The position numbers and the translations under genes are program-made. From Alphaproteobacteria bacterium (GTDB lineage Bacteria > Pseudomonadota > Alphaproteobacteria > SHVP01), in the NCBI GenBank assembly GCA_016869765.1, contig VGES01000009.1, forward strand, positions 32,092 through 96,091: 64,000 nt of DNA, given 5' to 3'. Under the pieces are notes generated by a model. That model saw only the letters and a program-made list of their open reading frames with translations, did not search any database and was not told where the DNA came from. Shown here piece by piece: positions 4,439 through 61,074 of this stretch. Position 1 is the stretch's first letter, and every line of letters starts with the position of its first letter.

Positions 4439-4469
4439 CCACGAATCAAAATCGACGGTATAACCCCTC

Positions 4470-5210: not shown

Positions 5211-5290
5211 CCGGGTGGCGCTCCTTGAGGAGCGTCAATGCCCGGAGGTTTGCCCGGCGTAGCATTTAAAGAGCAACGTCGGAGACACCC

Positions 5291-25197: not shown

Positions 25198-25198
25198 C

Positions 25199-43207: not shown

Positions 43208-43298
43208 GGTCGTTCACTCGACCGGCCTAACGGCCGCAAGAATTTCTTGAAGCGATAGAACGTCGTTGGCCGTGGCCGGACAGGTGGAGAAGGCCACT

Positions 43299-44105
43299 AT
43301 GGTTGAACCTATCTCTTCGGGATCGTCGTTGGGCATTCAGCAGCTCAACGCCACCAAGAAGTCCCTAAACAAGACGCAGGAACGGATCACGACAGGGCTG
43401 CGCATCAATGGCCCCAAGGACGATGCCGCGACCTTTGCCGTCGCGCAGGCGTTGCGGGGCACGCAGTCGGGCACGCAGGCAGTGAAAGTGGCGCTCAACA
43501 ACGCCGAGGCGACGGTCAACGTCGCGGCTTCGGCCAGCGTCCAAGTTTCCAACCTGCTGATCGATCTCAAGACCAAGGCGCTCGAGGCGAGCAACCCCGC
43601 CCTCGACGCGGCATCGCGCTCGACCATCAACAACGAGTTCCAGTCGTTGGTCGATCAGCTCAATACCGTGACCAGTTCGGCGTCGTTCAACGGCGTCAAC
43701 CTGGTCGAAAGTGGGGCCAGCAGCTTACAAGTTCTGACGACCGAGAGCGGCGACGCGGTCACCGTCAATGCCCAGAACCTCTCGGCGCAAGGGCTGGGCG
43801 TCGACAGCCTGTCGCTGCTGACGTCAGGCGATACTGCGACAGCGCTGGCGGCGATCGACAATGCGATCAACCAGGCGAATTCGAGCGCCGCGCAGTTGGG
43901 CTCGGATTTGCAGCGGATCGAGAATCAGGGCGAATTCACGACCCGACTCGACAATGTCTTGAGCCAGGGCATCGGCAACTTGGTCGACGCCAATCTGAGC
44001 GAAGAGGCAGCCGGTTTGACCGCCCAACGCGTCAAGGAAGAGTTGGGACTGAGGACCTTGGCCATCGCGAACGCCGGGCCGAAGGCGCTCCTGTCGCTAT
44101 TCTAG
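43299..44105 (+). CDS. flagellin
   Basis: The 268 residues from the ATG at 43299 (SD GGAGAAGG) have the D0/D1 N-terminal helices (GIQQLNATKKSLNKTQERITTGLRINGPKDDAATFAVAQAL) and the matching C-terminal helices (LGSDLQRIENQGEFTTRL, AGLTAQRVKEELGLRTLAIANAGPKALLSLF). Almost no variable D2/D3 region lies between them, so the filament surface would be minimal, as in other short alphaproteobacterial flagellins. It is secreted by the flagellar type III system. No other flagellar gene is in the window, and the gene stands alone between a long leader and a strong terminator. Confidence 0.95.
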   Translation: MVEPISSGSSLGIQQLNATKKSLNKTQERITTGLRINGPKDDAATFAVAQALRGTQSGTQAVKVALNNAEATVNVAASASVQVSNLLIDLKTKALEASNPALDAASRSTINNEFQSLVDQLNTVTSSASFNGVNLVESGASSLQVLTTESGDAVTVNAQNLSAQGLGVDSLSLLTSGDTATALAAIDNAINQANSSAAQLGSDLQRIENQGEFTTRLDNVLSQGIGNLVDANLSEEAAGLTAQRVKEELGLRTLAIANAGPKALLSLF

Positions 44106-44167: not shown

Positions 44168-45184
44168 TTAGAGAAAGACGCGCGCGATATCGAGCGAGGA
44201 ACGCTCACCCACGGCTTCGAAGTTCTGCTCGATCCAGCGCGACGCCGCGGCCCCGCCGACGCTGCGCAGGTGTTCGAGGAACGAGCGGTCCGTGTTCATC
44301 TTGCTCGCGGCGCCGAAGCGGCTCATGTCCGCGCTGGCCTCGACCATGTGCATGTTCATGCGTTTGTAGTCGCGACCATCGAGGGCGCCGCTGTCGATCA
44401 GCCGAGTCACGAAGTGGATCGCCCGCATCTCGTGGACGAGCGAGTTGTTGAAGCTGATCTCGTTGATGCGATCGACGACGTCACGGGCCGTCGTCGGAAT
44501 CTCGTCGCGACGCAACGGGTTGATCTGCACGATCACCACGTCGCGGGCCTCGCAGTTGTAGATCAGCGGGTAAATGCAGGGATTTCCCGAGTAGCCGCCG
44601 TCGTAATAGGCCTCGCCCTCGATCTCGACCGCCTGAAACAGAAACGGCAGAGCGGAAGAGGCGAGCAGCACCGCGGTCGACAAATCGCGGTGCGAGAAGA
44701 CCCGTGCTTTGCCGGTCTGCACGTTGGTCGCGGCAACGAACAGTTTGAGTCCCGACTGATGGCGCACGAGGTCGTAATCGATGGCTTCGTCGAGCAGCGC
44801 GCGCAGCGGGTTCAGGTTCAGCGGATTGAATTCGTAGGGCGAGAAGGCCCGGCTGAACATGTCGAAGAACGCGAAGCCCGGCGAACGCTCGAAATGCCGA
44901 TGTCCGCTCACGCGATCCCAGGGCGTCGGCTGAAAGGGTCCGAGCGCACCGAGGGTGGCCACCCGCGCCCAAAAGGCCGCGAGGGCCTCGCGTGCGCCGT
45001 CGCGTCCGCCGTTGGCGTACCCGGCGGCGAGCACCGCCGCGTTCATGGCCCCGGCCGAAGTTCCCGACAGACCTTCGATCTCGAGGCGGGGCTCGGCGAG
45101 CAGACGATCGAGCACGCCCCAGGTGAAAGCCCCATGCGAACCGCCGCCCTGCAACGCGAGATTGATTCGTTTGGGCGGCGACAT
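44168..45184 (-). CDS. patatin-like phospholipase
   Basis: The 338 residues have the patatin oxyanion loop LQGGGSHGAF at 11-20, the nucleophile elbow GLSGTSAGAMN with Ser43, and the catalytic Asp in YYDGGYSGNP (about 200). The enzyme hydrolyses acyl lipids; bacterial relatives are involved in lipid turnover and polyhydroxybutyrate granule metabolism. It lies 9 bp after the bdhA stop, so the two are probably one operon, which fits a link with storage polymer use (inference). Confidence 0.92.
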   Translation of the reverse strand: MSPPKRINLALQGGGSHGAFTWGVLDRLLAEPRLEIEGLSGTSAGAMNAAVLAAGYANGGRDGAREALAAFWARVATLGALGPFQPTPWDRVSGHRHFERSPGFAFFDMFSRAFSPYEFNPLNLNPLRALLDEAIDYDLVRHQSGLKLFVAATNVQTGKARVFSHRDLSTAVLLASSALPFLFQAVEIEGEAYYDGGYSGNPCIYPLIYNCEARDVVIVQINPLRRDEIPTTARDVVDRINEISFNNSLVHEMRAIHFVTRLIDSGALDGRDYKRMNMHMVEASADMSRFGAASKMNTDRSFLEHLRSVGGAAASRWIEQNFEAVGERSSLDIARVFL

Positions 45185-45193
45185 TCGGGCCGC

Positions 45194-45985
45194 TCAGCGG
45201 GCGGTCCACGCCCCGTCGACCGGGAGAGCCGCACCGGTGATCGAGCGAGCGGCTGGGCCACACAGGAACAGGACGATTCCGGCGACCTCCTCCACCTCGA
45301 TGAAACGTTTGTTGGGCTGGGCCGCCAGGATGATGTCGCTGATCACTTTGTCGCGCGGCAGTCCGTGGGCCTTGGCCTGCTCGGCGATCTGGCCTTCGAC
45401 GAGCGGCGTGCGCACGTACCCTGGGCAGATCGCGTTGCAGGTGACATCGAGGGTCGCCGTCTCGAGGGCCACGGTCTTGGTCAAGCCGAGCACGCCGTGT
45501 TTGGCCGCGATGTAGGCGCTTTTGAACGGTGAAGCGACCAGGCCGTGGGCCGAGGCGATGTTGACGATGCGGCCGAAGCCCCGCGATTTCATGCCTGGTA
45601 GCGCGGCGCGGATGGTGTGAAACGCCGATGACAGATTGATCGCGAGGATCGCGTCCCATTTGGCGATGGGAAATTCATCGACCGGCGCCACGAACTGGAT
45701 GCCGGCGTTGTTGACCAGGATGTCGACGGCTCCGAACACATTCTCGGCTTGCGCGACCATCGCCGCGATCTCGTCGGGTTTGGCCATGTCCGCGTTGGAA
45801 TAGAGCACCTTGCCGCGGCTGCTCCTGGCAATCTCGTGGCGCAGGGTCTCGATGGCGGCGGCGTCACCGAAGCCATTGAGCATGACGTTGGCCCCAGCCT
45901 GGGCCAACGCTCGCGCGATCCCGAGCCCGATGCCGCTGGTCGATCCCGTGACGACGGCGCTTTTCCCGGCGAGGTCTTGGTTCAT
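45194..45985 (-). CDS. bdhA: 3-hydroxybutyrate dehydrogenase
   Basis: The 263-residue SDR has TGSTSGIGLGIARALAQAGANVMLNGFGD, NNAGIQFVAPVDEFP, the catalytic YIAAKHGVLGLTKTVALE and the BdhA-typical ICPGYVRTPLVEGQI and AQPNKRFIEVEEVAG. It interconverts 3-hydroxybutyrate and acetoacetate with NAD and is associated with polyhydroxybutyrate degradation. It is the first gene of the bdhA-patatin unit and diverges from the SPFH gene. Confidence 0.94.
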   Translation of the reverse strand: MNQDLAGKSAVVTGSTSGIGLGIARALAQAGANVMLNGFGDAAAIETLRHEIARSSRGKVLYSNADMAKPDEIAAMVAQAENVFGAVDILVNNAGIQFVAPVDEFPIAKWDAILAINLSSAFHTIRAALPGMKSRGFGRIVNIASAHGLVASPFKSAYIAAKHGVLGLTKTVALETATLDVTCNAICPGYVRTPLVEGQIAEQAKAHGLPRDKVISDIILAAQPNKRFIEVEEVAGIVLFLCGPAARSITGAALPVDGAWTAR

Positions 45986-46110
45986 GGCGCGGGCATTAGG
46001 GGCAAATGGGGCTTCAGTGTCAACGAAACTGCGGTTGGCCAGGATAGACCTTGCCTTAGGTCGGCGATGGCCGTCATCCTTGACCGTTCGCCGCGATGCA
46101 GGGGAGCCGC

Positions 46111-47112
46111 ATGACCACCGCCATCGTCAGCCCGTTTCTGATCTTCGTCATCGCGATCGTCGTTTTCGCGATCATTTTGGTGTTGGCCGGGGTGAAGACG
46201 GTCCCACAGGCGCACGAATACACGCTCGAGCGATTCGGTCGCTACGTGCGAACGCTCACGCCTGGGCTCAACCTGATCATCCCGATCATCGATCGCGTCG
46301 GCAAGCGCGTGTCGATGCAGGAATCGGTGCTCGAAATTCCCTCGCAGGACGTGATCACCCACGACAACGCCACCGTGCGCACCGATGCGATCGTGTTCTA
46401 TCAGGTGATCGACGCGGCGCGGGCGGCTTACGAGGTCGCCAATCTCGGGGTCGCGATCAGCAACCTCGCCCAGACCAACATCCGTTCGGTGATCGGTGGC
46501 ATGCCGCTCGACGACGTGCTGTCCAAGCGCGACGAGATCAACGACCGTCTGCTCCGCGTCGTAGATGCGGCGACCAACCCATGGGGTGTCAAAGTCACGC
46601 GCATCGAGATCAAGGACCTGGCGCCGCCCAGCGATCTCGTCAACGCCATGGCGATGCAAATGAAGGCCGAGCGCGAGAAGCGCGCCGAAATTCTCACCGC
46701 CGAGGGCCAGAAGCAGTCGGCGATCCTGCGCGCCGAGGGGCAGAAGCAATCGGCGATCCTCGAAGCCGAGGGGCGCAAGGAAGCCGCTTTCCGTGATTCG
46801 GAGGCCCGCGAGCGCGCGGCGCAAGCCGAAGCCAAAGCGACGACGATGGTCTCGGAGGCGATCGCCCGGGGCAGCGTTCAGGCGATCAACTATTTCGTCG
46901 CCCAGCAATACGTCCGCGCGCTCGAAGTCATGGCCTCGTCGCCCAATCAGAAGACGTTGATCCTGCCGGTCGAAGCGGCCGGGGTCATCGGCTCGATCGC
47001 CGGCATCGCCGAGTTGGCCAAGGCGGCGCTCAGCGATGGCGGCGGAACACCGCGCGGTGGACCCGACCGACCGTCGGCGCCCTGGGGTTCGGGACCGCGT
47101 CCCGCCGAATAG
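46111..47112 (+). CDS. SPFH/stomatin-like protein (QmcA/slipin type)
   Basis: The product has 333 residues from the ATG at 46111 (SD AGGGGAG; an ATG at 46096 would add five residues). One N-terminal membrane helix (VSPFLIFVIAIVVFAIILVLAGV) is followed by the PHB domain (VPQAHEYTLERFGRYVRTLTPGLN, ATNPWGVKVTRIEIKDLAPP). A long coiled coil carries repeats EGQKQSAILRAEGQKQSAI. It forms membrane microdomain scaffolds and often guards proteases. The NfeD gene follows by 8 bp, the standard partner. Confidence 0.93.
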   Translation: MTTAIVSPFLIFVIAIVVFAIILVLAGVKTVPQAHEYTLERFGRYVRTLTPGLNLIIPIIDRVGKRVSMQESVLEIPSQDVITHDNATVRTDAIVFYQVIDAARAAYEVANLGVAISNLAQTNIRSVIGGMPLDDVLSKRDEINDRLLRVVDAATNPWGVKVTRIEIKDLAPPSDLVNAMAMQMKAEREKRAEILTAEGQKQSAILRAEGQKQSAILEAEGRKEAAFRDSEARERAAQAEAKATTMVSEAIARGSVQAINYFVAQQYVRALEVMASSPNQKTLILPVEAAGVIGSIAGIAELAKAALSDGGGTPRGGPDRPSAPWGSGPRPAE

Positions 47113-47120
47113 GAGCGATC

Positions 47121-47585
47121 ATGGACACCGTGCTCGGCTGGCTCGACTCGATTTCGTTCTGGCACTGGTGGGCGCTCGGCGTCGCGCTTCTGATCCTCGA
47201 AGTTTTCACCGTCACGATGTTCCTGATCGGACCGGCGATCGCCGCCGGCCTCGTGGGTCTCCTGTTGCTCATCGTTCCCGATTTCGACTGGCGATATCAG
47301 TTCCTCGTTTTTGCGCTCCTCGCCGTGGCCGCGTCGGTCGTCTGGCAGCGCTGGGTGCCGCGCAACCCGACGCCGACCGACCATCCGGGGTTGAACATGC
47401 GTGCGCAGCAGTACGTCGGACGGCGGGTGCAGTTGCACGAGGACCTGACCAACGGACGGGGACGGATCCACTTGGATGACTCGATCTGGATCGCCGAGAC
47501 AGGGGCGAGCGACACGCTCGCCAAGGGTCAGACGGTCGAAGTGGTGGGTTCGGACGGCGCCACGCTCAAGGTACGAGTGGTTTAG
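47121..47585 (+). CDS. NfeD-family membrane protein
   Basis: The 154 residues have three to four hydrophobic segments (SFWHWWALGVALLILEVFTVTMFLIGPAIAAGLVGLLLLIV), then a soluble OB-fold domain (QYVGRRVQLHEDLTNGRGRIHLDDSIW, TVEVVGSDGATLKVRVV). Short NfeD proteins are co-encoded with stomatins and are thought to modulate them. It is in the same operon as the SPFH gene. Confidence 0.93.
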   Translation: MDTVLGWLDSISFWHWWALGVALLILEVFTVTMFLIGPAIAAGLVGLLLLIVPDFDWRYQFLVFALLAVAASVVWQRWVPRNPTPTDHPGLNMRAQQYVGRRVQLHEDLTNGRGRIHLDDSIWIAETGASDTLAKGQTVEVVGSDGATLKVRVV

Positions 47586-47704
47586 AACCAGCAAGCGGCG
47601 GCGCTCCGGCGCTGTCGTCCGGTGAACGCTGGAGCACCGATCTTTGCGCAGGTGCAATAGAGGACCTCAAACGGGAAAGCCAAGCCGACAGCAAAGGTTG
47701 AGCG

Positions 47705-48115
47705 ATGCGTTTCTTCGGATGGTCGATCTGGTGGTTTTATCCTGCGTTCCTGCTCACCGCGGTGAATGCAACCGAGCGATTCTTTGATTTCGGGTGGCCG
47801 GCGAAGAGCCTGGCCTATTTCATGGGTGGCGGGTTGTCTGTGTACGTCGCTTCTGCGGCCTCGTTGGTTGCGTTGGTTTTGATATGGCGTCTGCCCCACC
47901 GCTTGAAGGGGCCCTACCGAATCATCTCCCTTTGCATCTCGGGGGCGTGGGTGCTCACCCTTTTTGGGTTGCCAGGGGTCCCAGGCTGGGAAGCCTACGG
48001 ATGGCCGCGCGACGTCGAGCTTTGGCAGGTGATCGTGTTCTGGGTGGTCGTGATCGCTCAGGCCGGTGTGCACATGCTCGCATGGCGGCGGGGCGCCATC
48101 ACCAACGACGCGTGA
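47705..48115 (+). CDS. four-helix membrane protein, family A copy 1, unknown
   Basis: The 136-residue product has four hydrophobic segments. It starts RFFGWSIWWFYPAFLLTAVNATERFF and continues ASLVALVLIWRLPHRLKGPYRIISL and ELWQVIVFWVVVIAQAGVHMLAWRR. The same landmarks (WYPAFLLTA-x-xAT-RFF, WRLPH-x-xKGPY, LWQ-x-x-VxW-V-I-QAGVH) occur in the gene at 51696, so they are paralogues flanking the repeated membrane-protein block. I do not recognise the family. Confidence 0.65.
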   Translation: MRFFGWSIWWFYPAFLLTAVNATERFFDFGWPAKSLAYFMGGGLSVYVASAASLVALVLIWRLPHRLKGPYRIISLCISGAWVLTLFGLPGVPGWEAYGWPRDVELWQVIVFWVVVIAQAGVHMLAWRRGAITNDA

Positions 48116-48275
48116 AGGCAGACACGCCGTGAGTCACGACGGGTGCCATGATGAAGGATCCTCGAAGAATGCGTATCCAAAGGACGTGATGATCGCGCGC
48201 GGTGTTGCGATGCCATTGAACGTGCTGTGCTGTGGTGAGGTCCTGCAGGTTGGGGCCAGCGGACGCGGCTGAACC

Positions 48276-49160
48276 ATGCTCCTTCCGGTCGCCATATCGG
48301 CGTTCGTTGCAGCGATGGTTTGTTTCGCCAATGGGCTACCGTACTACGCCTTGCTCTTGATCGTCGTGGCGGCGGTAGCCGCGTTGGCGCACCGATCGGC
48401 GGTACGCAAGGCAGAACGCGAAGAATGGGAACGGACCGAGCGCGACCTCGAGTTGCTAATGGCCGATGACGCTCCGGCGACCACGAAGAACAAGACGTTG
48501 CCGGCCCAAGAGGCTTCTCGAGACTCCAAGAGCGAGATACTGCTCACCGACGAAGTTTCTCCCGAGCCAGAGGTATTGCTGACCCAGGAGGTTTCCCCTC
48601 TGCGAGAGGGGCCGGAAGTATTTTCGGACCGCGAGGTTGTTGCCGATCCGGCGATCGCCCCAGCCGGTCCGGTGTTGGACGATCGCGAACCGCCAGTCGC
48701 TGCGGCCTCCGACGATGGATGGAGACTAACGAGGAACCTCACAGATGAGGAACGGAAGGAAGGAGTCGAGGAACGAGTCGTGACGAACGTCCAGCGTCGT
48801 AGGACCTGGGCTATCAATGCCGGCCTGGCGTTTGTGATGGCGATAATCTGTTTCGTCTCCCGGCTACCGTCGTACGGCTTCCTTTTGATCGCCGCGGCGG
48901 CGTACTTCGTGTTGATGCACCGATCGGCGGTACGCAGGGCAGAACGCGAAGAATGGGAACGGACGGAGCGCGACATCGAACCATTGATAAACGATGACGA
49001 ACGCTCGGACCCCGGGGGCGAGGTGTTGCCGACCGAAGAGGCCCCCTCGGTCTCCGAGCGAGAGATCCTTCCGGCCGAGGAGGCTCCGCTGGCGCCTGAG
49101 AGCGAGACACTGCTCACCGACGAGGGTGCTCCCGAGCCAGAGGTATTGCTGACCCAGTAG
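48276..49160 (+). CDS. duplicated-module membrane protein, family B, 5' part of a TAG-split gene
   Basis: The 294 residues contain two copies of one module. Each has a hydrophobic hairpin (VAISAFVAAMVCFANGLPYY; INAGLAFVMAIICFVSRLPSYG), a basic/acidic helix HRSAVR(K/R)AEREEWERTERD, and an acidic linker with EILLTDE or ETLLTDE and PEPEVLLTQ. The stop is a TAG at 49158-49160. The first copy has GAG at the same position (48588-48590) in otherwise nearly identical DNA, and the frame stays open after the TAG to 50108. The gene therefore looks like a longer protein interrupted by one base change. Function unknown. Confidence 0.65.
   Translation: MLLPVAISAFVAAMVCFANGLPYYALLLIVVAAVAALAHRSAVRKAEREEWERTERDLELLMADDAPATTKNKTLPAQEASRDSKSEILLTDEVSPEPEVLLTQEVSPLREGPEVFSDREVVADPAIAPAGPVLDDREPPVAAASDDGWRLTRNLTDEERKEGVEERVVTNVQRRRTWAINAGLAFVMAIICFVSRLPSYGFLLIAAAAYFVLMHRSAVRRAEREEWERTERDIEPLINDDERSDPGGEVLPTEEAPSVSEREILPAEEAPLAPESETLLTDEGAPEPEVLLTQ
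48531..48604 (+). repeat. direct repeat R1, copy 1
   Basis: A 74-bp segment coding for the acidic ILLTDE-PEPEVLLTQ linker. It recurs exactly 570 bp downstream at 49101-49174 with five differences by my count. One of these changes GAG to TAG. Confidence 0.85.
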
Positions 49161-49174
49161 GTTTCCCCTCTGCG
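49101..49174 (+). repeat. direct repeat R1, copy 2 (contains the TAG)
   Basis: Second copy of the 74-bp linker repeat. The T at 49158 turns the Glu codon of copy 1 into an amber stop, and the coding sense VSPLR continues after it. Confidence 0.85.
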
Positions 49175-49250
49175 TGGGGCGTTTTGGGCAACCCCGCAAC
49201 CGCTCGACGAAACGAACCTTCTGCCCTTTGGTCCGGCGCTCTGGGTATCC

Positions 49251-50108
49251 GTGATCTACTTCGCGGTGTTGTCGCTCGTTTGGGCATTTGATCCCGAGAT
49301 GACCATCGTTGGGGTCGCCGTCGCCATTGGTGTCTATGCCGCGATCGCGTTCCTGGTGCTCTGGCTCGGGATTGTGATCCGAATCGCGGCCGAAGGAAGT
49401 CGGACGGACTATAACTGGGTTGCGATTGGGAGGGCGGAGCGAGAGTCGCGTCGACGGCGCCGCGCGCGGGAGCAGGCGGCGCGCGAAAACGAGATATTGC
49501 TGACCGATGTCGCCCCAACGGAGGCCGAAGGTGATGAAAAGTCCGGGCGCGAAACACAGGAGAGCGAGATACTACTGACCCACGTCGTCCCACCGGTGAT
49601 CGCGAGGGAAGGGATGGGTCCGGTGCGGGACGATCGCGGACCGCCAGTCGCGGCCGTGATCGACGGCGGAAGGAAGCCAACGATGAACGTTTGGGATCAG
49701 GAACAGAATCAGGCCCTTGTGGCACGGACCTATCTCGTCAGTAACATCTTCTTCGTGATTTATGCATGGAAGCTTGCTTACCTCGGGGCGTGGCCGTTCG
49801 TGGACCCGCCGGATTGGAGCGATTGGGCGCTTCTTGCCCTGGCCGGTGTCCTCCTTGTCGCGATCTATCTGCCGATCGGTCCGCGGAACCGGCCAACCTG
49901 GAGAGTCCTGTTGGCCTCGGCCGGGATGGTGATCGCGGTATGCGGAGGGTTCCTCGAGGCGATCGCTGAAGCCGGCCAACAGGACATCATTGGGCAGGTG
50001 CTGGTCTGGTTGGGAACTGTAGCGTTCCTGATCGGCTCGGTGCTGTGGGCGCGACGTGGGCGGGTGCTAGCGGCACCACCGAAGGGCCCGGTCGGACCGG
50101 TGTCGTGA
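49251..50108 (+). CDS. family B membrane protein, 3' part of the TAG-split gene
   Basis: The GTG at 49251 gives 285 residues, but the frame is open back to the TAG at 49160 and is the same frame as the preceding gene, reading VSPLRGAFWATPQPLDETN before this start. It encodes two membrane helices (VLSLVWAFDPEMTIVGVAVAIGVYAA), a basic helix (RAERESRRRRRAREQAAREN) and two ILLT linkers. A GPVRDDRGPPVAA block echoes GPVLDDREPPVAA of the 5' part. The C-terminal module of four helices reads VIYAWKLAYLGAWPF, LPIGPRNRPTWRV, VLVWLGTVAFLIGSVLWARRG. It may be made from the GTG, by read-through, or not at all. Confidence 0.55.
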   Translation: MIYFAVLSLVWAFDPEMTIVGVAVAIGVYAAIAFLVLWLGIVIRIAAEGSRTDYNWVAIGRAERESRRRRRAREQAARENEILLTDVAPTEAEGDEKSGRETQESEILLTHVVPPVIAREGMGPVRDDRGPPVAAVIDGGRKPTMNVWDQEQNQALVARTYLVSNIFFVIYAWKLAYLGAWPFVDPPDWSDWALLALAGVLLVAIYLPIGPRNRPTWRVLLASAGMVIAVCGGFLEAIAEAGQQDIIGQVLVWLGTVAFLIGSVLWARRGRVLAAPPKGPVGPVS

Positions 50109-50149
50109 CGGCCACCAGGACGTGGCAACGAGTTTCGGCGCAAGTACCG
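50016..50149 (+). repeat. direct repeat R2, copy 1
   Basis: 134 bp covering the last roughly 30 codons of the family B gene and 41 bp after its stop. It recurs at 51531-51664 with about eight mismatches and no gaps. Confidence 0.9.
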
Positions 50150-50303
50150 CTCGCGGGGACACCTCGAATGAGACAAACAGGCTCCCACGAAATTGCTGGG
50201 ACGTGCCGGTCGGGCGCGGTATTGCGATGCAATTGATGCTGTGGGCTCGAAGTGGGCACGCGCAGAAACCGCTGACGCCGGGACCGATCGGCCCCGTTTC
50301 GTG

Positions 50304-51383
50304 ATGGCTGGTGATCGCCGAAAGCAGGACGAGACTTGGGGCACGCTCCCGCTGCTCGGCGAGATCGCCCTACCGTTTCGGCGGGCGACGGCAATCATGG
50401 CGACCGCCGCCTATTTCGCTCCGTTCCTGATCGCCTGGATCTTCGTGCCGCAGGTGACCGTCGCGGCACTCAAGATTGCAGCGGCGTTCTACGCTGTGAT
50501 CGCCGCTTCTTTCCTGTTACCTGTGTTGTTCTCGCGCGCACTGGCGGAGGGCGATCCGTTGGCTGACAGCGAGCCGCCAAAGATCACCGATGCTAGCAGC
50601 GATGTTGCGAGTGGCCCCGGCGCGATGGCGGCTCCGACTATCATCGAAGGGCCGGTGCACAACGTCCCTCGCCGACCGATCGGGAAGATCATCGCCGATC
50701 TTTGGACATCGGCCCTGACGGGGTGGACGATCGAGAGAAGACTCGCCCTCCGCGCCCGCGCCGAGTTTGCCCTCGTCATTCCAGTGGTCATTTACGCTTG
50801 GAAGGCGCTCTATCTGGGGGCGTACCCGTTCACGAACTCGGTTGATATTGGCGACGGGGGAATCCTCGGTCTGTACCTTCTGTTGAACGTTGCCATCCTT
50901 CTCCCGATTGGTCCTCAAAACGCACCATCGTGGAAAGTCAAGTTGGCGATGCCGGGGGCGGTCGTCGCGCTATTGGGCAGCTTCTTGCGGTCCGATCAGC
51001 AGGTTGCAACCGGCCAGACAATGGTCTTGTTAGGGACCGGTTTGGTCATCGCTTCTTTCGCGCTGTGGGCAACCGGGGAGGAAGGTCCCTCCAAGGGGCG
51101 GATCGCTTCGGATGGGGAACCGCGCTCCTCCCTCGCGATCCCCTTCTTTGCGGTCCTCTTTTCCTGGAAGCTCGTCTACTTCGGCGGGTTCCCGTTCGCC
51201 GAGCTTGCCCTGATCGATGGCGCGTTTCTTTGTCTCTTTGTGGTCGTTTTGATCATCGCCTATCTCCGGCAGTTCAGCCCGAAAACGGGACCGGCATGGA
51301 AACTATCCATCGTGGGTATTAGCAATCTTCCCAGCACTAATCGGTGGGTTCGAGGGGGCGCAGGCCCGAAGTCACGACAATGA
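50304..51383 (+). CDS. family B membrane protein, 3' end frameshifted
   Basis: From the ATG at 50304 the frame gives 359 residues: a two-helix hairpin (AIMATAAYFAPFLIAWIFV, ALKIAAAFYAVIAASFLLPVLF), an acidic linker, then two copies of the C-terminal module (VIYAWKALYLGAYPF, LPIGPQNAPSWKV; then FSWKLVYFGGFPF, SPKTGPAWKL). After SIVG the frame reads ISNLPSTNRWVRGG and stops at 51383. Shifting by one base near 51318 gives LAIFPALIGGFEG and later AQILVWLGTAAFLLGLLIW up to a stop at 51513, matching the paralogue ending at 50108. The start lacks a strong SD. Function unknown. Confidence 0.6.
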   Translation: MAGDRRKQDETWGTLPLLGEIALPFRRATAIMATAAYFAPFLIAWIFVPQVTVAALKIAAAFYAVIAASFLLPVLFSRALAEGDPLADSEPPKITDASSDVASGPGAMAAPTIIEGPVHNVPRRPIGKIIADLWTSALTGWTIERRLALRARAEFALVIPVVIYAWKALYLGAYPFTNSVDIGDGGILGLYLLLNVAILLPIGPQNAPSWKVKLAMPGAVVALLGSFLRSDQQVATGQTMVLLGTGLVIASFALWATGEEGPSKGRIASDGEPRSSLAIPFFAVLFSWKLVYFGGFPFAELALIDGAFLCLFVVVLIIAYLRQFSPKTGPAWKLSIVGISNLPSTNRWVRGGAGPKSRQ

Positions 51384-51530
51384 CACGGTTGCTGCCGCGC
51401 AAATACTTGTCTGGCTCGGAACGGCGGCGTTCTTGCTCGGTTTGTTGATTTGGAGGCGTGGTCGACAGCCGCCCGCTCAGCCCACAAATCAGCCGAGTGG
51501 ACCTATGTCGTGACGCATGCGCCAATGGGC

Positions 51531-51664
51531 ACTGTGGTGTTCCTGATCGGCTCGGTGCTGTGGGCGCGACGTGGGCGTGCGCTAGCGGCACCACCGAAGG
51601 GCCCGGTCGGACCGGTGTCGTGAGGGCCGCCAGGACGTGGCAACGAGTTTCGGCGTAAGCACCG
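51531..51664 (+). repeat. direct repeat R2, copy 2 (orphan 3' end)
   Basis: Same 134 bp as at 50016-50149, here following a frameshifted paralogue. It encodes an orphan VFLIGSVLWARRGR end with the original stop and downstream bases, but no gene body attached. Confidence 0.9.
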
Positions 51665-51695
51665 TCGCCAAGCCGGAAAGTGAGCCAGGCTGAAG

Positions 51696-52115
51696 ATGCG
51701 TCTCTTCGGAATGTTGAGCTGGTGGCTCTACCCCGCGTTCCTGTTGACCGCGGCGGAGGCGACCTTGCGATTCTTTGGCCTCATGGAGGCGTCGACCAAC
51801 CCGCGCGACCACCTGAGTATCGCCATGCTGCCCGCGTACCTAGCCCTGGCCGCGGGCGCGATCCTGGTGGTTTCAGCGTGGCGATTGCCGCATGGAATGA
51901 AGGGCCCTTATCAACTCGTTTCCTTGGGCGTCCTGGTGGCATGGGCGCTCACATCGTATGCGTCGCACTGGCAATTCGTGCCAAACGGAAGTGCCTATGG
52001 GTCCTCGAGCCCGGTCCAACTTTGGCAGCTGCTTGTCCTCTGGGCCGTCATAATCGTTCAGGCCGGTGTGCACGCGCTAGCGCGGCGGCGCCGTGCCTTC
52101 ATCTACGCCCGGTGA
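51696..52115 (+). CDS. four-helix membrane protein, family A copy 2, unknown
   Basis: The 139-residue product is paralogous to the gene at 47705, sharing WYPAFLLTA, the WRLPH-MKGPYQLVSLG block and LWQLLVLWAVIIVQAGVHALARRR, with a divergent central loop (MEASTNPRDHLSIAMLPAY). Four hydrophobic segments are predicted by eye. It closes the repeated block, and a strong terminator follows. Confidence 0.65.
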   Translation: MRLFGMLSWWLYPAFLLTAAEATLRFFGLMEASTNPRDHLSIAMLPAYLALAAGAILVVSAWRLPHGMKGPYQLVSLGVLVAWALTSYASHWQFVPNGSAYGSSSPVQLWQLLVLWAVIIVQAGVHALARRRRAFIYAR

Positions 52116-52160: not shown

Positions 52161-52187
52161 AAGAAGGGCCCCGCAGGGCCCTTCTTC
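52161..52187. terminator. bidirectional intrinsic terminator
   Basis: AAGAAGGGCCC and GGGCCCTTCTT form an 11-bp perfect stem with loop CGCA, between the convergent gene ends at 52115 and 52208. Confidence 0.88.
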
Positions 52188-52207: not shown

Positions 52208-52804
52208 TTACGCGCGGGTGTCCTTGTAGGCCTGACGGGACGTGCAGGCATCGAGCCAGCGCTTCACGTTGGGGTAGCTTTCCATCTTGAAGCCGCCCGG
52301 CACTGCCGCGGCGATGCACGCGGCCGCGTTGAGATCGGCGATCGTGAAGTCGCTGCCGATCAGGTACTTGCGGTTCGCCAGGTACGTGTTCAAGTACTCC
52401 ATGCGGGGCTTGAACGCTTCCTCGGCCGCATTGGCCTTGGCCGCGTCACGCTTGTCTGCCGGCTTGAACGCGCGCTCGACCAGCATCGTGATCGCGTGCG
52501 GCTCGGCCTCTGTCGCCGACCACAGCGCCCACTGCTCGGCCGCCGCCTGGTCCTTCTCCGAGGCGGGCCACAGCTTCTTGTATTTGCGGGCGAAGTACAT
52601 GTTGATCGCGAGCGATTCCGACATCGTCAGGTCGCCATCCTGCATCGTCGGCACTTTGCCCTGTGGGTTGACCTTGAGGTAGTCCGCGCCTTTGAGCTGA
52701 TCGGGCGTGAGCGCCTTCTGGTCGTAGGACACGCCCATCTCCTTGAGCGCCCAGGTGCAGCGGTTCGCGCGCGAGCGGGCGCTGCCATAGATCGTGATTG
52801 CCAT
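52208..52804 (-). CDS. glutathione S-transferase
   Basis: The 198 residues start ITIYGSARSRANRCTWALKEMGVSYD, with Ser in the catalytic region. LKVNPQGKVPTMQDGDLTMSESLAINMY supplies the cis-Pro and glutathione gamma-Glu-binding ES. The C-terminal helical domain includes YLIGSDFTIADLNAAACI. It closely resembles in layout the pair at 56473 and 57078 (RSRANRC, ESLAIN), so these three form a local paralogous group. Confidence 0.92.
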   Translation of the reverse strand: MAITIYGSARSRANRCTWALKEMGVSYDQKALTPDQLKGADYLKVNPQGKVPTMQDGDLTMSESLAINMYFARKYKKLWPASEKDQAAAEQWALWSATEAEPHAITMLVERAFKPADKRDAAKANAAEEAFKPRMEYLNTYLANRKYLIGSDFTIADLNAAACIAAAVPGGFKMESYPNVKRWLDACTSRQAYKDTRA

Positions 52805-52889: not shown

Positions 52890-53930
52890 TTAGCCGTGCA
52901 GCAATATCTTGCCCACGGCCGTACGACCGGCCAGGAGTTCTACGGCTTCGGACGCCTCCGCCAAGGGGAAGGCAGCCGCCACGACGGGCTTCAGGTGGCC
53001 CTTCGCCAACTCGCCGAACACGGTCGCCGTGGTGGCTTTCGGATAGGACGAGGTCGTGAGGATGCGAATCTGCCGACGGAAGAGTTTGACGATGTCGATC
53101 GTCACCTGTTCGCCGGCATGCGCCCCAGCGATGGCGATACGCCCGCCGGGCGCCATCGCCTCGATCGTCGCTTTGAGTACGGGTCCGCCCACCGTCTCGA
53201 TAGCGAGGTCGGCCCCTTGGCCATGGGTCAGACGGCGAATTTCGGCCGCCATGTCGTCTTCGCGGTAGTTGACCACCGCGTCGGCGCCGAGGGCCAACAC
53301 GCGCCCGGCCTTATCGCGCGACCCGACGGTCGCGATCACCCGCGCCCCCGCCCGCTTGACGACCTGGATCGCTGCCGTGCCAACGCCGCCACCGGCACCG
53401 TTGACGACAACGGTCTCTCCTTCGCGGACTCCACCCTGGTTGATCGCGAGTTCCCAGGCGGTGGAGAATGTCGTGCGCCCGGCGGCGGCGGTTTCGAAGC
53501 TGAGACCGTCGGGTAGGCGGACGAGATTGTGCGGCGCGACCGCGATGTACTCGGCGAATGTTCCCCAACAGGTCAGTCCCAGGCGCCCGAAGTTGTGACA
53601 CAGGTTGTCGAGGCCCCGTTGGCACCGACAATCCAGGTGACGGCACGAGCCGCTCGACAGGGCCGAGGCGGGCATCACGCGATCGCCGGCGCGAAACGCC
53701 GTGACCTCGCGGCCGAAAGCGACCACCTCACCGGCGCCTTCGCTTCCCATGACGTGGGGCAAGGGAATCTGGTAGCCCGCCACGCCCTGACGCACATCGA
53801 GGTCGAGATGATTGACGCCGGCCGTGTGAATCTTGACGAGCACTTCGTTGGCAGCGGGCACCGGTGTCGGGACGTCCTCGTAGCGCATGACCTCCGGCCC
53901 ACCGTGCGCGTGAATGACGATCGCTCTCAT
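52890..53930 (-). CDS. MDR-family zinc-type alcohol dehydrogenase / quinone oxidoreductase
   Basis: The 346 residues start RAIVIHAHGGPEVMRYEDVPTPVPAANEVLVKI. The catalytic domain has HLDLDVRQG and a structural-zinc-type Cys cluster (SSGSCRHLDCRCQRGLDNLC). The cofactor domain has VNGAGGGVGTAAIQVVKRAGARVIATVGS. The N-terminal GGPEVMRY is typical of quinone oxidoreductase/crotonyl-CoA reductase relatives. The substrate is unknown. The ATG at 53930 is preferred over the longer frame. Confidence 0.9.
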   Translation of the reverse strand: MRAIVIHAHGGPEVMRYEDVPTPVPAANEVLVKIHTAGVNHLDLDVRQGVAGYQIPLPHVMGSEGAGEVVAFGREVTAFRAGDRVMPASALSSGSCRHLDCRCQRGLDNLCHNFGRLGLTCWGTFAEYIAVAPHNLVRLPDGLSFETAAAGRTTFSTAWELAINQGGVREGETVVVNGAGGGVGTAAIQVVKRAGARVIATVGSRDKAGRVLALGADAVVNYREDDMAAEIRRLTHGQGADLAIETVGGPVLKATIEAMAPGGRIAIAGAHAGEQVTIDIVKLFRRQIRILTTSSYPKATTATVFGELAKGHLKPVVAAAFPLAEASEAVELLAGRTAVGKILLHG

Positions 53931-54024
53931 ATCCGTCCCTCGGTTGTGCGCTTCAACCGCCCACGTATACACTTGGCGTGACGCGGCCCGCGAGCACGTC
54001 GGGTCTGACAAGGGGAGGGACCTC

Positions 54025-54135
54025 ATGCGTTTCACTCGTGGCGAGTTGTTTCCACTTGCCGCCGGCGCGGCCGGCGCTCAGGTCATCAACGTCGACCACC
54101 TCACGGAAGCCGCCGCTGCGCGCGTGACGTCGTAG
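54025..54135 (+). pseudogene. leader remnant of an ABC transporter substrate-binding protein
   Basis: The 36-codon frame starts at an ATG with an excellent SD (AAGGGGAGGG). It reads RFTRGELFPLAAGAAGAQ, an export-leader pattern (basic n-region, LAAGAA core) typical of substrate-binding proteins, then breaks into unrelated VINVDHLTEAAAARVTS and stops at the ATPase start. The position directly before a NitT/TauT-type ATPase and the near-complete absence of a mature domain suggest a large internal deletion. Confidence 0.6.
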
Positions 54136-54926
54136 TGCTGTCCGGCGAATACGTCGTCTTCGACGACATCTCGTTCCACTATCACCAGGGCGGGGCGGCC
54201 GTCCTGGCGAACTTGCAACTCACGATGGGTGAGGGGGAGTTCTTCCTCCTCCTCGGCCCGTCTGGGTGCGGCAAGACCACGGTCCTCAACCTGTTGGCGG
54301 GGTTCGATCGACCGAACGGCGGTTCGATCCGCGTGGGCGGCAAGCCCGTGGATGGACCGGGTGTCGACCGCGTCGTCATCTTCCAGGGCGACGATTCCCT
54401 TCTCGGTTGGCTCACGGCCGTCGACAACGTCGAGTTCGGCCTCCGCGTCGCCGGTATTTCGAAGGCCGAGCGACGTCAGCGTGCCGAGCGGGCGCTCGAG
54501 CTTGTCGGGCTCAAGGGCCAGGGCCACAAATTCCCCCACCAGCTTTCGGGTGGCATGAAGCAGCGCATCCAGATTGCTCGCGCGCTCGTGTGCGTCTCCG
54601 ACGTGCTGCTGATGGACGAGCCGTTTGCTGCGCTCGATGCGCAGACGCGAGCAACGCTTCAGGACGAACTCGCCCGGATATGGCAGGAGACCAAACGCAC
54701 GATGCTGTTCATCACCCACGACATCGCCGAGGCGATCATCCTCGCCGATCGCATCGGTGTCATGAACGCGGGGCCGGCCTCCAAGATCAAAGAGATTATC
54801 GTCAACGACCTGCCGCGGCCGCGACGCCGTGGCGATCCCGCGTTCGGTGCGCTCTATGAGCGAATCGAGCGCGTGGTCGCCGAAGAGGTGCGTCGCACCA
54901 TGCAGCGCGACGCCGCTCGTGGCTGA
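54135..54926 (+). CDS. ABC transporter ATPase, nitrate/sulfonate/taurine type (SsuB/TauB-like)
   Basis: The 263 residues carry Walker A LLGPSGCGKTTVLNLLAG, Q-loop VIFQGDDSLLGWLTA, signature HQLSGGMKQRIQIARAL, Walker B VLLMDEPFAALDAQTR and H-loop MLFITHDIAEAI. The QGDDSLLGWLTAVDNVEFGL pattern fits the NitT/TauT class. The GTG overlaps the stop of the leader remnant. The ATPase looks intact but its substrate-binding and permease partners are only remnants, so it is probably an orphan. Confidence 0.9.
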   Translation: MLSGEYVVFDDISFHYHQGGAAVLANLQLTMGEGEFFLLLGPSGCGKTTVLNLLAGFDRPNGGSIRVGGKPVDGPGVDRVVIFQGDDSLLGWLTAVDNVEFGLRVAGISKAERRQRAERALELVGLKGQGHKFPHQLSGGMKQRIQIARALVCVSDVLLMDEPFAALDAQTRATLQDELARIWQETKRTMLFITHDIAEAIILADRIGVMNAGPASKIKEIIVNDLPRPRRRGDPAFGALYERIERVVAEEVRRTMQRDAARG

Positions 54927-55020
54927 CGGCCGTATCATCGGTGCCAAGCCGGGACAGCTGTTCTTCATGATCAAGATGCCGGCAGCGATGCCGTTCGTGT
55001 TCACCGGCTTGCGGCTCGCT
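54919..55020 (+). pseudogene. permease fragment of the same ABC transporter
   Basis: One frame reads GRIIGAKPGQLFFMIKMPAA then MPFVFTGLRLA, the cytoplasmic coupling-helix region (EAA loop) of NitT/TauT permeases, with no residues of the preceding or following helices. It overlaps the ATPase stop by 8 bp and ends 64 bp before the MmgE/PrpD gene. This is a 34-codon scrap left by deletion of the rest. Confidence 0.75.
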
Positions 55021-55084
55021 GATCGATCGCTTCGGCGGGCGCTTCGCCGTACGCGGTGCAGATCTGTAATCGAAAGGAATCGAC

Positions 55085-56476
55085 ATGACGGATTCAGCGA
55101 AGCGCGAGGATGCCGGCATCACCCTGGCGCGCTACGCCGCCAATCTGCGATACGAGGACCTGCCGGCCGACGTGGTCGCCAAGGTCAAGGAGCTGATCCT
55201 CGATTCGTTCGGCGTGGCGCTCGCCGGGTCGACCGCTCCGGGGATCGACGCCGCCGTCAAGATGATCCGGCAGTGGGGCGGCAACCCGGAGGCGACGCTT
55301 TACGGCCATGGCCTGAAGCTACCCAGCTCCTCGGTTGCGATGGTCAACGGCGCGATGTCCACCGCGCGGGACTTCGACGACACGCTCGATGACGCGATGC
55401 TGCACACCCAGCCTTCGGTGCTGCCGGGCGTGCTAGCGATGGCAGAAGCCGAAGGCGGGCGTAACGGCCGCGACATTATCGCCGCCGTGACGGCCGGGGC
55501 CGAGCTCATTTCGCGCATGGGCCATGCAAGGCGCAAGGGCCAAGAGTTTCTCCCCACGGGGACCTGCGGCGCGCTGGGGACGGCAGGGGCCGTCGCACGC
55601 TTGCTCGGACTACCGTTCGAAGGCGTGCTCAACGCTTGTGGCGTGGCCTACAGTCAATGCGCGGCGAACGTCCAGCCGCTGCGCGACGGCGCGACGGTCA
55701 AGCGGTTTCATGCCGGTTTTGCCGCGCGCAACGGCGTGGTGGCCGCGACGCTCGCCCGCAATGGCCTGACCGGTGCCCGGCATTTCCTCGAAGGCCCCTA
55801 TGGCTACTACAACCTCTATGAGCGCGGCGAATACGACCCGGCGCCGCTCACCAAGGATCTCGGGCGGTACTTTCACCTAAAGGAACTCGCGCTCAAGCCC
55901 TGGCCGAGCGCCCGCGACAATCACGGTATCGTCGATGCGGCGCTTGAGTTGGCGGCGGAGCACGATCTCAAGGCCGAACAGATTGCCTCGATCGATGCAT
56001 ACCTGCCGCCCAATGCGTTCGGCGTCTCGGGCAAGCCGTGGGCCAAGGCCGATGGCCATCCCGTGGTCGAAGCGATCGTGTCGGGCGCCTACTGTGTTGC
56101 GGTTGCGGTCATCCGCCGCGGACTCTATCTCGAAGATTTCACCGAGGAGCGCATCGCCGATCCAGCCGTAGGGGCGCTCGCCCGTCGGGTCAACGTCGCG
56201 TTGTTTCCCGGCGTCACCAGCGAGATCGCCTTCGTGCCGCAAATGCTCAGAGTCCATTTGAAATCGGGCCGCACGATCGAACGTCGCATCGACACGATGA
56301 AGGGCCATCCCGGGAAACCGATGAGCCGCCCCGAAGTGATCGACAAGTTCCGGCGCTGTGGCAAGTTCGCCGCGCGCCCGGCCAGCGCCAAGCAACTGGA
56401 CGCCATCATTCACGCGGTCGACAACCTCGAAGCGATGAAGGACGTGCGTGAACTGGGCGTGCTGATGGCGCTTTAG
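55085..56476 (+). CDS. MmgE/PrpD family protein
   Basis: The 463 residues show the family layout: LPADVVAKVKELILDSFGVALAGS, MVNGAMSTARDFDDTLDDAMLHTQPSVLPGVLAMAE, PTGTCGALGTAGAVARLLGL, a C-terminal lid, and LKPWPSARDNHGIVDAAL. Members include 2-methylcitrate dehydratase, cis-aconitate decarboxylase and uncharacterised hydrolyases. No prp genes are nearby, so the substrate is open. An SD (AAAGGAA) precedes the ATG. It lies where the lost transporter operon would have continued, so it may be the retained catabolic gene of that unit. Confidence 0.9.
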   Translation: MTDSAKREDAGITLARYAANLRYEDLPADVVAKVKELILDSFGVALAGSTAPGIDAAVKMIRQWGGNPEATLYGHGLKLPSSSVAMVNGAMSTARDFDDTLDDAMLHTQPSVLPGVLAMAEAEGGRNGRDIIAAVTAGAELISRMGHARRKGQEFLPTGTCGALGTAGAVARLLGLPFEGVLNACGVAYSQCAANVQPLRDGATVKRFHAGFAARNGVVAATLARNGLTGARHFLEGPYGYYNLYERGEYDPAPLTKDLGRYFHLKELALKPWPSARDNHGIVDAALELAAEHDLKAEQIASIDAYLPPNAFGVSGKPWAKADGHPVVEAIVSGAYCVAVAVIRRGLYLEDFTEERIADPAVGALARRVNVALFPGVTSEIAFVPQMLRVHLKSGRTIERRIDTMKGHPGKPMSRPEVIDKFRRCGKFAARPASAKQLDAIIHAVDNLEAMKDVRELGVLMAL

Positions 56477-57075
56477 CGTCCGTGCGCCTTGGCGTAGGTC
56501 GGTCGGGCCTCCAAGCGGGCCAACCAGCCGTCGAACGACGGAAAGGGCGCCAGGTCGATGCGCGAGGCGCGCAACAGGGAGAAGACACCCGCGACATTGA
56601 TGTCGGCAACGGTGAAACGATCGCCCAATAGAAAGTCGCGACCGCGCAGGTGGAGGTCGAGGTACATCAGGCGGGGACGCAAGGCTTGCTCCCCCTCGAT
56701 CGCGACGCGCTCCTCGCGACGCTCGGGCGGGCGCAACACGCGATGGCGCGCGACGGCGAAGAAATTCGGTTCGGCTTCCGTTGCGGCCCACATCGTCCAC
56801 TGCATTGCCCGGGCCCGATCTTGCGGCGGTTTTGGCCACAACGCAGTGCGTCGCGCCAGGTGAAGATTGATCGCCAGCGACTCGCTCAGCACCCAATCAT
56901 CCTCGACCCAGGTCGGAATTTTGCCCCACGGGTTGATCGCGAGGAACGCCGCGTCCTTCGTGCCGACGCCCGAGGCCATCGGCACATGCTCGAAAGGTTG
57001 GCCGAGTTCGTAGAGCGTCCACAAACAGCGGTTGGCCCGCGAGTTGTGATCGCCATAGAGGCGGGGAAGGGCCAT
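56473..57075 (-). CDS. glutathione S-transferase
   Basis: The 200 residues read PRLYGDHNSRANRCLWTLYELGQPFEHVP at the N-terminus, then INPWGKIPTWVEDDWVLSESLAINLHLA (cis-Pro, ES) and a helical C-terminal domain (DFLLGDRFTVADINVAGVFSLL). It is a close paralogue of the gene directly upstream (57078), 2 bp apart, and translationally linked. The stop overlaps that of the convergent MmgE/PrpD gene by 4 bp. Confidence 0.92.
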   Translation of the reverse strand: MALPRLYGDHNSRANRCLWTLYELGQPFEHVPMASGVGTKDAAFLAINPWGKIPTWVEDDWVLSESLAINLHLARRTALWPKPPQDRARAMQWTMWAATEAEPNFFAVARHRVLRPPERREERVAIEGEQALRPRLMYLDLHLRGRDFLLGDRFTVADINVAGVFSLLRASRIDLAPFPSFDGWLARLEARPTYAKAHGR

Positions 57076-57077
57076 GC

Positions 57078-57698
57078 CTAGTCGAACCCGTGCGCCTTCT
57101 TGTACTGCGGGCGGACTTCCAATTCGCGGAGCCAGCGGTCGGCGTGGGGATGGGCGGTCATGTCGACCTTGGCCCGACGCAAGAAATTGAGCACCGAGGC
57201 CACATTGACATCAGCGAACGAAAATCGATCTCCCAGGATGTAGCGCCCGGATTTCTCGAGATGGCGGTCGAGATGATCCAAGCGCGGTGCCAACGATTTC
57301 TCCGCCTGGGCGGCTTTGGCCGGGTCGCGCTTCTCCGGCGCCGCGATCACACGGTGGATCGCCAGTTGCACGGCCGGTGGTTCAGCCTCGGTGGCCGCCC
57401 AGAACGTCCACTGCAACACGTGCATCTGAGCGTCCTTGTCCCTAGGCCACAGTGGCGTCATGTAGGTTTGCGCAAGGTACAGATTGATCGCGAGCGATTC
57501 GGTCAGTACCAGGTCGCCGTCGACCAGCGCCGGGGTCTTTCCGGCCGGATTGATGGCGAGGAATGCCGGCGTCTTGGTTTCGCCCGAGCCGTGGCTCAAC
57601 GGCACGTGCTCGAAGGGGACGCCCATTTCGTAGAACGCCCAGAGGCAGCGCGTGGCGCGCGATCGAATATCGCCGTAGAGCTTGGGTAGGGCTGGCAT
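57078..57698 (-). CDS. glutathione S-transferase
   Basis: The 206 residues from the ATG at 57698 read LPKLYGDIRSRATRCLWAFYEMGVPFEHVP, then INPAGKTPALVDGDLVLTESLAINLYLA and YILGDRFSFADVNVASVLNFL. They are arranged exactly as in the downstream GST at 56473, indicating a tandem duplication followed by divergence. Both lack an obvious catalytic Tyr or Cys at the N-terminus and have a Ser instead. Confidence 0.92.
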   Translation of the reverse strand: MPALPKLYGDIRSRATRCLWAFYEMGVPFEHVPLSHGSGETKTPAFLAINPAGKTPALVDGDLVLTESLAINLYLAQTYMTPLWPRDKDAQMHVLQWTFWAATEAEPPAVQLAIHRVIAAPEKRDPAKAAQAEKSLAPRLDHLDRHLEKSGRYILGDRFSFADVNVASVLNFLRRAKVDMTAHPHADRWLRELEVRPQYKKAHGFD

Positions 57699-57772
57699 GG
57701 GTCCTCCGATTTGGCGCGCCATCATGCCCCAGACCGAGGCTGTCGTGGCAAAATGATCGATCGGAGGTCGCG

Positions 57773-60953: not shown

Positions 60954-61074
60954 GGGATCCTTCCTGAGTCTCAAGGCATACCGCGACGGCGGGCCGCAGC
61001 CAAGCGTGCGGGGAAGGCTGCGCCGGGGCACGCGGCTGGGCTAAGATATGTCAACCGTTCCACCGGAGGTTCCC

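What the first reader, a model, noticed from the sequence alone, without database searches (positions are those of the whole stretch)
47705..52115. Locally amplified, modular membrane-protein locus of unknown function
Two copies of a four-helix protein (47705, 51696) flank genes built from repeated units: two-helix hairpins with HRSAVR-AEREEWERTERD tails, acidic ILLT linkers, GPV-DDR-PPVAA blocks, and four-helix modules with YAWK-YLG-PF and LPIGP-N-P-W. Short leader repeats (48197-48219 and 50214-50236) also recur. Such a mosaic of intact, split and orphan modules suggests active duplication and recombination of a lineage-specific envelope system. I know of no named family that fits.
Basis: partly seen in the sequence, partly recalled or inferred. 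Interest (0 to 1): 0.72.

Follow-up and report, generated by a model that had tools for sequence, protein, structure and literature searches.

The report
Orphan membrane-gene cluster behind qmcA–ybbJ
Directly behind a bacterium's qmcA–ybbJ gene pair lie four neighbouring genes for predicted membrane proteins, built from repeated modules and with no convincing relative in any other lineage searched; they likely serve the membrane cage that the pair would make, which nobody has tested.

Summary
The repeats are real: four of the window's seven self-repeat pairs lie in this 4.4 kb block; 20 shuffles give none. Four same-strand genes (F1, A, B, F2) are built from a four-helix protein (F), two-helix hairpins (H), another four-helix module (Y) and motif-rich linkers. 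Gene A is split by an in-frame TAG; gene B is frameshifted here but intact (402 aa) on another contig. Searches with F, Y and H-Y queries found only near-identical copies among 5.8 billion proteins, and only chance-level hits in 384 other genomes of the class.

The block follows a qmcA–ybbJ (SPFH–NfeD) pair and ends at a terminator-like hairpin. In two sister genomes ybbJ and the GST gene are 16 and 8 bp apart; a third holds three different, overlapping four-helix genes there. Best reading: a young, lineage-restricted set of inner-membrane proteins, likely accessory to or clients of the QmcA–YbbJ cage. Main rival: a decaying foreign island. In 35 other qmcA–ybbJ loci of the class such genes are not usual. 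Function is inferred, not shown.

The parts
46096..47112 (+). qmcA-like SPFH gene (context)
   Evidence: Band_7; PDB 8z5g_A QmcA E 6.8e-117
47121..47585 (+). ybbJ-like NfeD gene (context)
   Evidence: PF01957; 8z5g_B YbbJ E 3.5e-20
47705..48115 (+). F1, predicted four-helix protein, 136 aa
   Evidence: near-identical P0001 on other contigs
48182..48229 (+). leader repeat in front of gene A
48276..49160 (+). gene A, 5' part: hairpin H1, linker, GPV block, hairpin H2 (from about 48795), linker, TAG at 49158-49160
49161..50108 (+). gene A, 3' part in the same frame: hairpin H3 (from about 49221), linker, GPV block, Y1 (from about 49725); only start codon after the stop is GTG 49251
   Evidence: P0002
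50011..50154 (+). tail repeat, first copy (end of A and following DNA)
50199..50243 (+). leader repeat in front of gene B
50304..51383 (+). gene B: hairpin H4, linker, Y2 (from about 50757), Y3 (from about 51123); frame changes at about 51323-51325 and the tail reads on in another frame to 51512
   Evidence: intact 402-aa form P0003
51526..51668 (+). tail repeat, second copy: orphan 3' end of a Y gene
51696..52115 (+). F2, predicted four-helix protein, 139 aa
52161..52186 (+). terminator-like hairpin, 11 pairs
   Evidence: not listed by the stricter scan
52208..52804 (-). GST gene, right-hand neighbour of the slot (context)

Best explanation
Directly behind a qmcA–ybbJ pair lie four same-strand genes built from repeated modules, which encode predicted multi-pass inner-membrane proteins and likely act as lineage-restricted accessory or client proteins of the QmcA–YbbJ membrane cage. 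Shown: the module repeats, the gene order, the empty site in two sister genomes of one genus, and the absence of convincing relatives in the searches made. Predicted: each module has an even number of helices, so that the motif-rich linkers and the arginine-rich tails face the cytoplasm, the side that E. coli QmcA is predicted to face. Inferred and untested: the genes are transcribed together with qmcA–ybbJ; the F and Y helix bundles sit in the membrane patch that the cage encloses; the repeated E-[ILV]LLT linker motifs are docking sites; the cluster grew by copying whole units and single modules and is still being reshuffled, gene A being now split.
For: QmcA and YbbJ identities. Same strand, 119 bp between ybbJ and F1; a terminator-like hairpin after F2 at 52161-52186. 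Empty site: 16 bp between the ybbJ and GST stop codons in G002, 8 bp in G001, whose qmcA–ybbJ pair is itself a deletion remnant. In G004 the same slot holds three other genes that overlap the ybbJ end and one another, each with four predicted helices; two of the three also have low third-position GC, 0.62 and 0.74, against 0.86-0.94 for four neighbours. Topology: K+R on the N-terminal side against the other side 25:2 (A, with X at the stop), 17:2 (intact B), 7:3 (F1), 8:2 (F2). Constraint: pN/pS 0.53-0.70 in 7 module pairs, upper 95% bound below 1 in 6 of 7. Intact B on another contig. Precedents in print: a lineage-specific membrane protein encoded beside an SPFH gene (FArhodopsin, PMC10308929, passages); QmcA predicted to face the cytoplasm (PMC10434171, passages); flotillin–NfeD holding client proteins (PMC11222466, abstract and discussion).
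Against: No physical or expression evidence links the four genes to QmcA. In the class survey only 1 of 35 evaluable qmcA–ybbJ loci has, by a rough ORF caller, a small multi-helix orphan (87 aa, no Pfam match) as its next same-strand gene; a second hit of the numeric rule is a GST. Gene A carries a stop codon and B is frameshifted here. Foreign-like codon use (third-position GC 0.71-0.78 against 0.84-0.90) fits a passing island as well. A and B have no clear ribosome-binding site. A 10-pair hairpin lies just behind ybbJ (47595-47618), though without a T run; the consensus scan lists three weak terminator-like sites inside F1, against 4.5 expected in shuffles of the region. The G004 genes show no convincing homology to F or Y. 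Both structure models are of low confidence (mean pLDDT 53.8 and 52.4).
Confidence: 0.36

Rival explanations
1. A decaying foreign island: orphan membrane genes that came in from an unsampled source, or arose by chance, landed between ybbJ and GST, duplicated and are now being lost; their place behind qmcA–ybbJ means nothing.
For: In-frame TAG in A, frameshift in B, orphan 3' fragment; low third-position GC; relaxed pN/pS of 0.53-0.70; such genes are not usual behind ybbJ in the class.
Against: B is intact on another contig; the upper 95% bound of pN/pS is below 1 in 6 of 7 module pairs; the charge pattern of the loops is kept in all four proteins; no mobile-element gene was recognised at either edge of the block: the neighbours are ybbJ and GST; tRNA and Rfam scans of the window found nothing.
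Confidence: 0.33
2. A functional membrane system of its own (for example envelope stress, transport or contact-dependent protection) that only shares a site and perhaps a promoter with qmcA–ybbJ.
For: Modular multi-pass proteins, two flanking F copies, motif repeats in cytoplasmic linkers.
Against: No family match that would point to such a role; sister genus G004 also has four-helix genes in the same slot, overlapping ybbJ.
Confidence: 0.22
3. A phage-derived or anti-phage membrane cassette.
For: Orphan, low third-position GC, membrane-rich; 5' part of A has a weak match to phrog_19373 of unknown function (E 5.3e-4, 21 bits, residues 15-58) and to PADLOC 2TM-TIR (E 0.041).
Against: No match for B in 50,697 phage records or for F in viral contigs; no TIR or other effector domain in Pfam; no phage gene recognised among the neighbours.
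Confidence: 0.05

Closest known systems
QmcA–YbbJ (SPFH1–NfeD) operon, E. coli, PDB 8z5g
   Same: The two genes directly upstream match both subunits.
   Different: The operon described in print is SPFH plus NfeD; a figure legend in PMC2636767 says that further genes may lie inside such operons and were left out (passage). No counterpart of the four module genes was found.
Flotillin-associated rhodopsin (FAR) cluster, PMC10308929
   Same: A lineage-specific multi-pass membrane protein encoded next to an SPFH gene (passages).
   Different: There the protein is a rhodopsin and the SPFH gene a flotillin; here the proteins are orphans and the pair is qmcA–ybbJ.
Taxonomically restricted (orphan) gene clusters of bacteria, e.g. 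PMC10003748
   Same: No homologs outside the lineage, clusters of homologs within it (listing and start of abstract only).
   Different: Here the genes are multi-module membrane proteins, up to about 610 codons, with internal module amplification.
Slot genes G4a, G4b, G4c of the sister genus (L020)
   Same: Small predicted four-helix genes without a Pfam match above cut-off, between ybbJ and GST.
   Different: The best scores to Y modules are out of register and near shuffle level (Y2-G4b 65 against a maximum of 60); treated as unrelated.

Membership tests
QmcA–YbbJ SPFH–NfeD operon (upstream genes) | SPFH/Band_7 protein of the QmcA type | tested here: met
   8z5g_A E 6.8e-117, residues 15-311
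QmcA–YbbJ SPFH–NfeD operon (upstream genes) | adjacent NfeD protein of the YbbJ type | tested here: met
   8z5g_B E 3.5e-20; 8 bp between the genes
QmcA–YbbJ SPFH–NfeD operon | F1, A, B and F2 on the same transcript | tested here: inconclusive
   same strand, terminator-like hairpin after F2; three weak terminator-like sites inside F1, fewer than in shuffles; no RNA data
SPFH-cage client or accessory proteins | physical association with QmcA or YbbJ | not testable with these tools
   needs co-purification or microscopy
FArhodopsin cluster | rhodopsin-family protein beside a flotillin | tested here: not met
   no Pfam or NCBIfam match above cut-off for F, A, B
YhhN family (PF07947) | Pfam gathering score 25.6 | tested here: not met
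   14.9 bits for the 3' part of A
UbiA (PF01040) | Pfam gathering score 34.2 | tested here: not met
   25.0 bits, E 1.3e-5, for the 5' part of A
Anti-phage membrane effector (PADLOC 2TM-TIR) | two helices plus a TIR domain | tested here: not met
   E 0.041 over 33 residues; no TIR in Pfam
Heme-copper oxidase subunit I (COX1, PF00115) | COX1 Pfam match | tested here: not met
   the Y profile weakly hits COX1 proteins in other genomes, but the locus proteins have no COX1 match up to E 1
F and Y as one family | profile-profile homology | tested here: not met
   hhalign probability 0.5%

The most novel reading that the evidence does not exclude
The gap behind ybbJ in this bacterial family is a cargo slot of the QmcA–YbbJ cage: each genus loads it with its own fast-evolving four-helix membrane proteins, here a modular set whose cytoplasmic linkers carry repeated docking motifs, so that the cage is a conserved shell with lineage-specific contents.
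Probability: 0.14. Interest if true: 0.66.

Novelty: new variant of a known kind. Interest (0 to 1): 0.4.

Why it matters
What the QmcA–YbbJ cage holds is not settled in the papers seen here. If the genes behind ybbJ encode proteins that live inside it, they are natural probes: lineage-specific proteins placed next to a conserved shell by the genome itself. Even if not, the block is a clear example of orphan membrane genes growing by module duplication at a site that is empty in sister genomes, with intact and broken forms at hand.

Tried and rejected
Homology of F to Y: an eye-made alignment looked good, hhalign gave 0.5% probability. Homology of the G004 slot genes to Y: Y2-G4b and Y3-G4b stand out by z of 4.6 and 4.4, but the alignment puts Y helices 3-4 on G4b helices 1-2, and hhalign gave 1.1%. 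Class hits of the Y profile (E 4.3e-4 to 9.7e-4 in 4 of 384 other genomes): three of the four ORFs were read and are COX1; the fourth (L036) was not read. Class hit of the F profile in 1 of 384 (E 8.9e-4): two stop codons inside a 50-residue match. ybbJ flank as a general hotspot of the class: not supported, 1 of 35; 5 of the 40 fetched loci were dropped before the count (4 without a YbbJ hit, 1 too short). Recoding of TAG: TAG also ends qmcA and ybbJ, so a stop is assumed. Structure: both models have mean pLDDT of 52-54, so no fold search was run. Not searched: the 5' part of gene A (H1, H2) and F2 as queries in the protein database, full-length gene A there, and H modules in other genomes; the A5 protein search scored only the 7996 candidates that share most words. 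Fragments of A and B as queries found only the block in the own genome. In one search F2 was not returned by F1 although the window encodes it, so that database does not list every gene of this contig.
Full report
What is there. The block 47705-52115 holds four genes on the + strand: F1 (136 aa), gene A, gene B and F2 (139 aa). F1 and F2 are 50% identical. Gene A is one frame from 48276 to 50108 with an in-frame TAG at 49158-49160; its order is hairpin H1, linker, GPV block, hairpin H2, linker, stop, hairpin H3, linker, GPV block, Y1. Gene B starts at ATG 50304 and reads H4, linker, Y2, Y3; the frame changes at about 51323-51325. The protein database holds an intact 402-aa form, P0003, on a contig of 24,039 bases, so not the window's contig of 96,091; it agrees with the window at 339 of the first 340 residues and over the last 62. 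F1 is also on other contigs (P0001, one residue different). P0002, the part of A after the stop, is listed on five contigs, the longest as long as the window's own; this suggests, but does not show, that the stop is shared by several assemblies.

The repeats are not chance. They have different ages: synonymous distance 1.17 for Y1/Y2, 0.77 for F1/F2, 0.41 for H1/H2, and 93-94% DNA identity for the tail copy at 51526-51668, which ends sharply on both sides. Within-kind pairs score above all 200 shuffles; H1-H3 (135 against a maximum of 79) and H3-H4 (87 against 56) do so too, while F and Y are not related by profile comparison. pN/pS is 0.53-0.70 in seven pairs; the upper 95% bound is below 1 in six, and 1.12 for H1/H2. 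So selection acts, but weakly.

Are they genes? In sliding windows the annotated frame scores higher than the other two over most of the block, but low in absolute terms: 0.10-0.13 bits per codon against 0.37-0.52 for qmcA, ybbJ and GST, and a spurious antisense ORF at 44270-45532 reaches 0.127. Third-position GC is 0.71-0.78 against 0.84-0.90. This fits foreign or young genes. A and B lack a clear ribosome-binding site; F1 has an AAAGG-like one.

Topology. Hydropathy gives 4 helices for F1 and F2, and 10 each for gene A (X at the stop) and intact B; K+R counts on the N-terminal side against the other side are 7:3, 8:2, 25:2 and 17:2. So the termini, the linkers and the LPIGP-type loops are predicted to be cytoplasmic. 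Nine of ten copies of the [ILVT]L[LP][TA] motif lie in the linkers of A; B has none. AlphaFold models from two-row alignments are of low confidence, so no fold search was made.

Relatives. F1: 1 protein (its near-identical copy) among 64 candidates. Y profile: none among 859 candidates, a search limited to short proteins. H-Y profile: P0002 and P0003 only, 7996 candidates scored. Own genome: only this block. Family and order: 1 of 10 genomes, the own one. Class: the Y profile hits 4 of 384 others at E 4.3e-4 to 9.7e-4, of which three were read and are COX1 proteins; the F profile hits 1 of 384, with stops inside. Two scans of genome contigs and one of viral contigs confirmed none; plasmids and phages none for P0003; the tools warn that records close to the window's genome may be left out of some of these. 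Pfam: below cut-off only (UbiA 25.0 of 34.2 bits, YhhN 14.9 of 25.6). NCBIfam: nothing near cut-off. PHROGs: one weak hit of unknown function, E 5.3e-4, for the 5' part of A. PADLOC: 2TM-TIR at E 0.041. PDB: chance-level only. The 5' part of A and F2 were not used as queries in the large protein database, and H modules were not sought in other genomes.

The site. The gene pair upstream is qmcA–ybbJ: 8z5g_A QmcA at 6.8e-117 and 8z5g_B YbbJ at 3.5e-20. To the right lies a GST gene on the other strand. In sister genome G002 the ybbJ and GST stop codons are 16 bp apart (my note says 17). In G001, of the same genus, a deletion has joined the first codons of qmcA to the end of ybbJ, and the interval to GST is 8 bp. 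In G004, of another genus, the interval holds three genes of 155, 139 and about 171 aa that overlap the ybbJ stop and one another, each with four predicted helices; G4a and G4c have third-position GC of 0.62 and 0.74, G4b 0.87, against 0.86-0.94 for qmcA, ybbJ, GST and rhodanese there. G4a and G4b look like distant copies of each other (76 against a maximum of 57 in 200 shuffles). In G008 a rhomboid gene follows ybbJ. So of the five family genomes in which a YbbJ match was found, two have orphan four-helix genes behind it. In the class, 41 of 115 genomes gave a QmcA match at 1e-80; all 40 others were fetched, 35 could be judged, and only one has a small two-helix orphan as the next same-strand gene (87 aa, no Pfam match); one more has a rhomboid. 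The flank of ybbJ is therefore not a general hotspot (rough ORF caller of my own).

How it may work. A terminator-like hairpin of a type seen elsewhere in the window closes the block at 52161-52186; before it there is a 10-pair hairpin without a T run at 47595-47618, and three weak scanner hits inside F1, fewer than in shuffles. Co-transcription with qmcA–ybbJ is thus plausible and untested. QmcA of E. coli is predicted to face the cytoplasm (PMC10434171, passages) and 26 copies form a complex (PMC12624060, passages); flotillin–NfeD of Staphylococcus aureus is reported to hold unfolded client proteins (PMC11222466, abstract and discussion); a rhodopsin paired with a flotillin gene is a published case of a lineage-specific membrane protein tied to an SPFH gene (PMC10308929, passages). 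From this I infer accessory or client proteins of the cage. The decaying-island reading is nearly as likely.

In print. Searches for NfeD/SPFH/operon, QmcA/YbbJ, QmcA/FtsH/HtpX and NfeD/flotillin/adjacent gene listed no paper whose title or abstract start names such a cluster behind qmcA–ybbJ; the library holds open-licence papers only.

Noticed in passing
L027 (G001) 4356-4620: A deletion has joined the first codons of qmcA to the last third of ybbJ; the pair is lost in this sister genome while its neighbours remain.
   Followed up: partly
L020 (G004) 4158-5531, - strand: Three overlapping orphan genes, each with four predicted helices, directly behind ybbJ; the first two look like copies of each other.
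   Followed up: partly
L021 (G008) 991-1986 and L072 (G034), next gene behind ybbJ: A rhomboid protease gene follows ybbJ directly in two unrelated genomes (Pfam).
   Followed up: no
window 61048-62271 and 62740-63927: Two methyltransferase-like genes (label by eye) in tandem, 72% identical in DNA over 1180 columns.
   Followed up: no
window 22658-24082 and 23908-25257, - strand: Overlapping ORFs of two related flavoenzyme-like proteins (label by eye), 66% identical in DNA over 610 columns.
   Followed up: no
window 43266-44105: A short flagellin (Flagellin_N and Flagellin_C), standing apart from any recognised flagellar gene in the listing.
   Followed up: no
window 52890-57725: Between GST and the cupin-like/rhodanese genes the window holds ADH, ABC transporter, MmgE/PrpD and two more GST genes that are not in the matching stretch of G002, so this side of the site has grown too.
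   Followed up: partly
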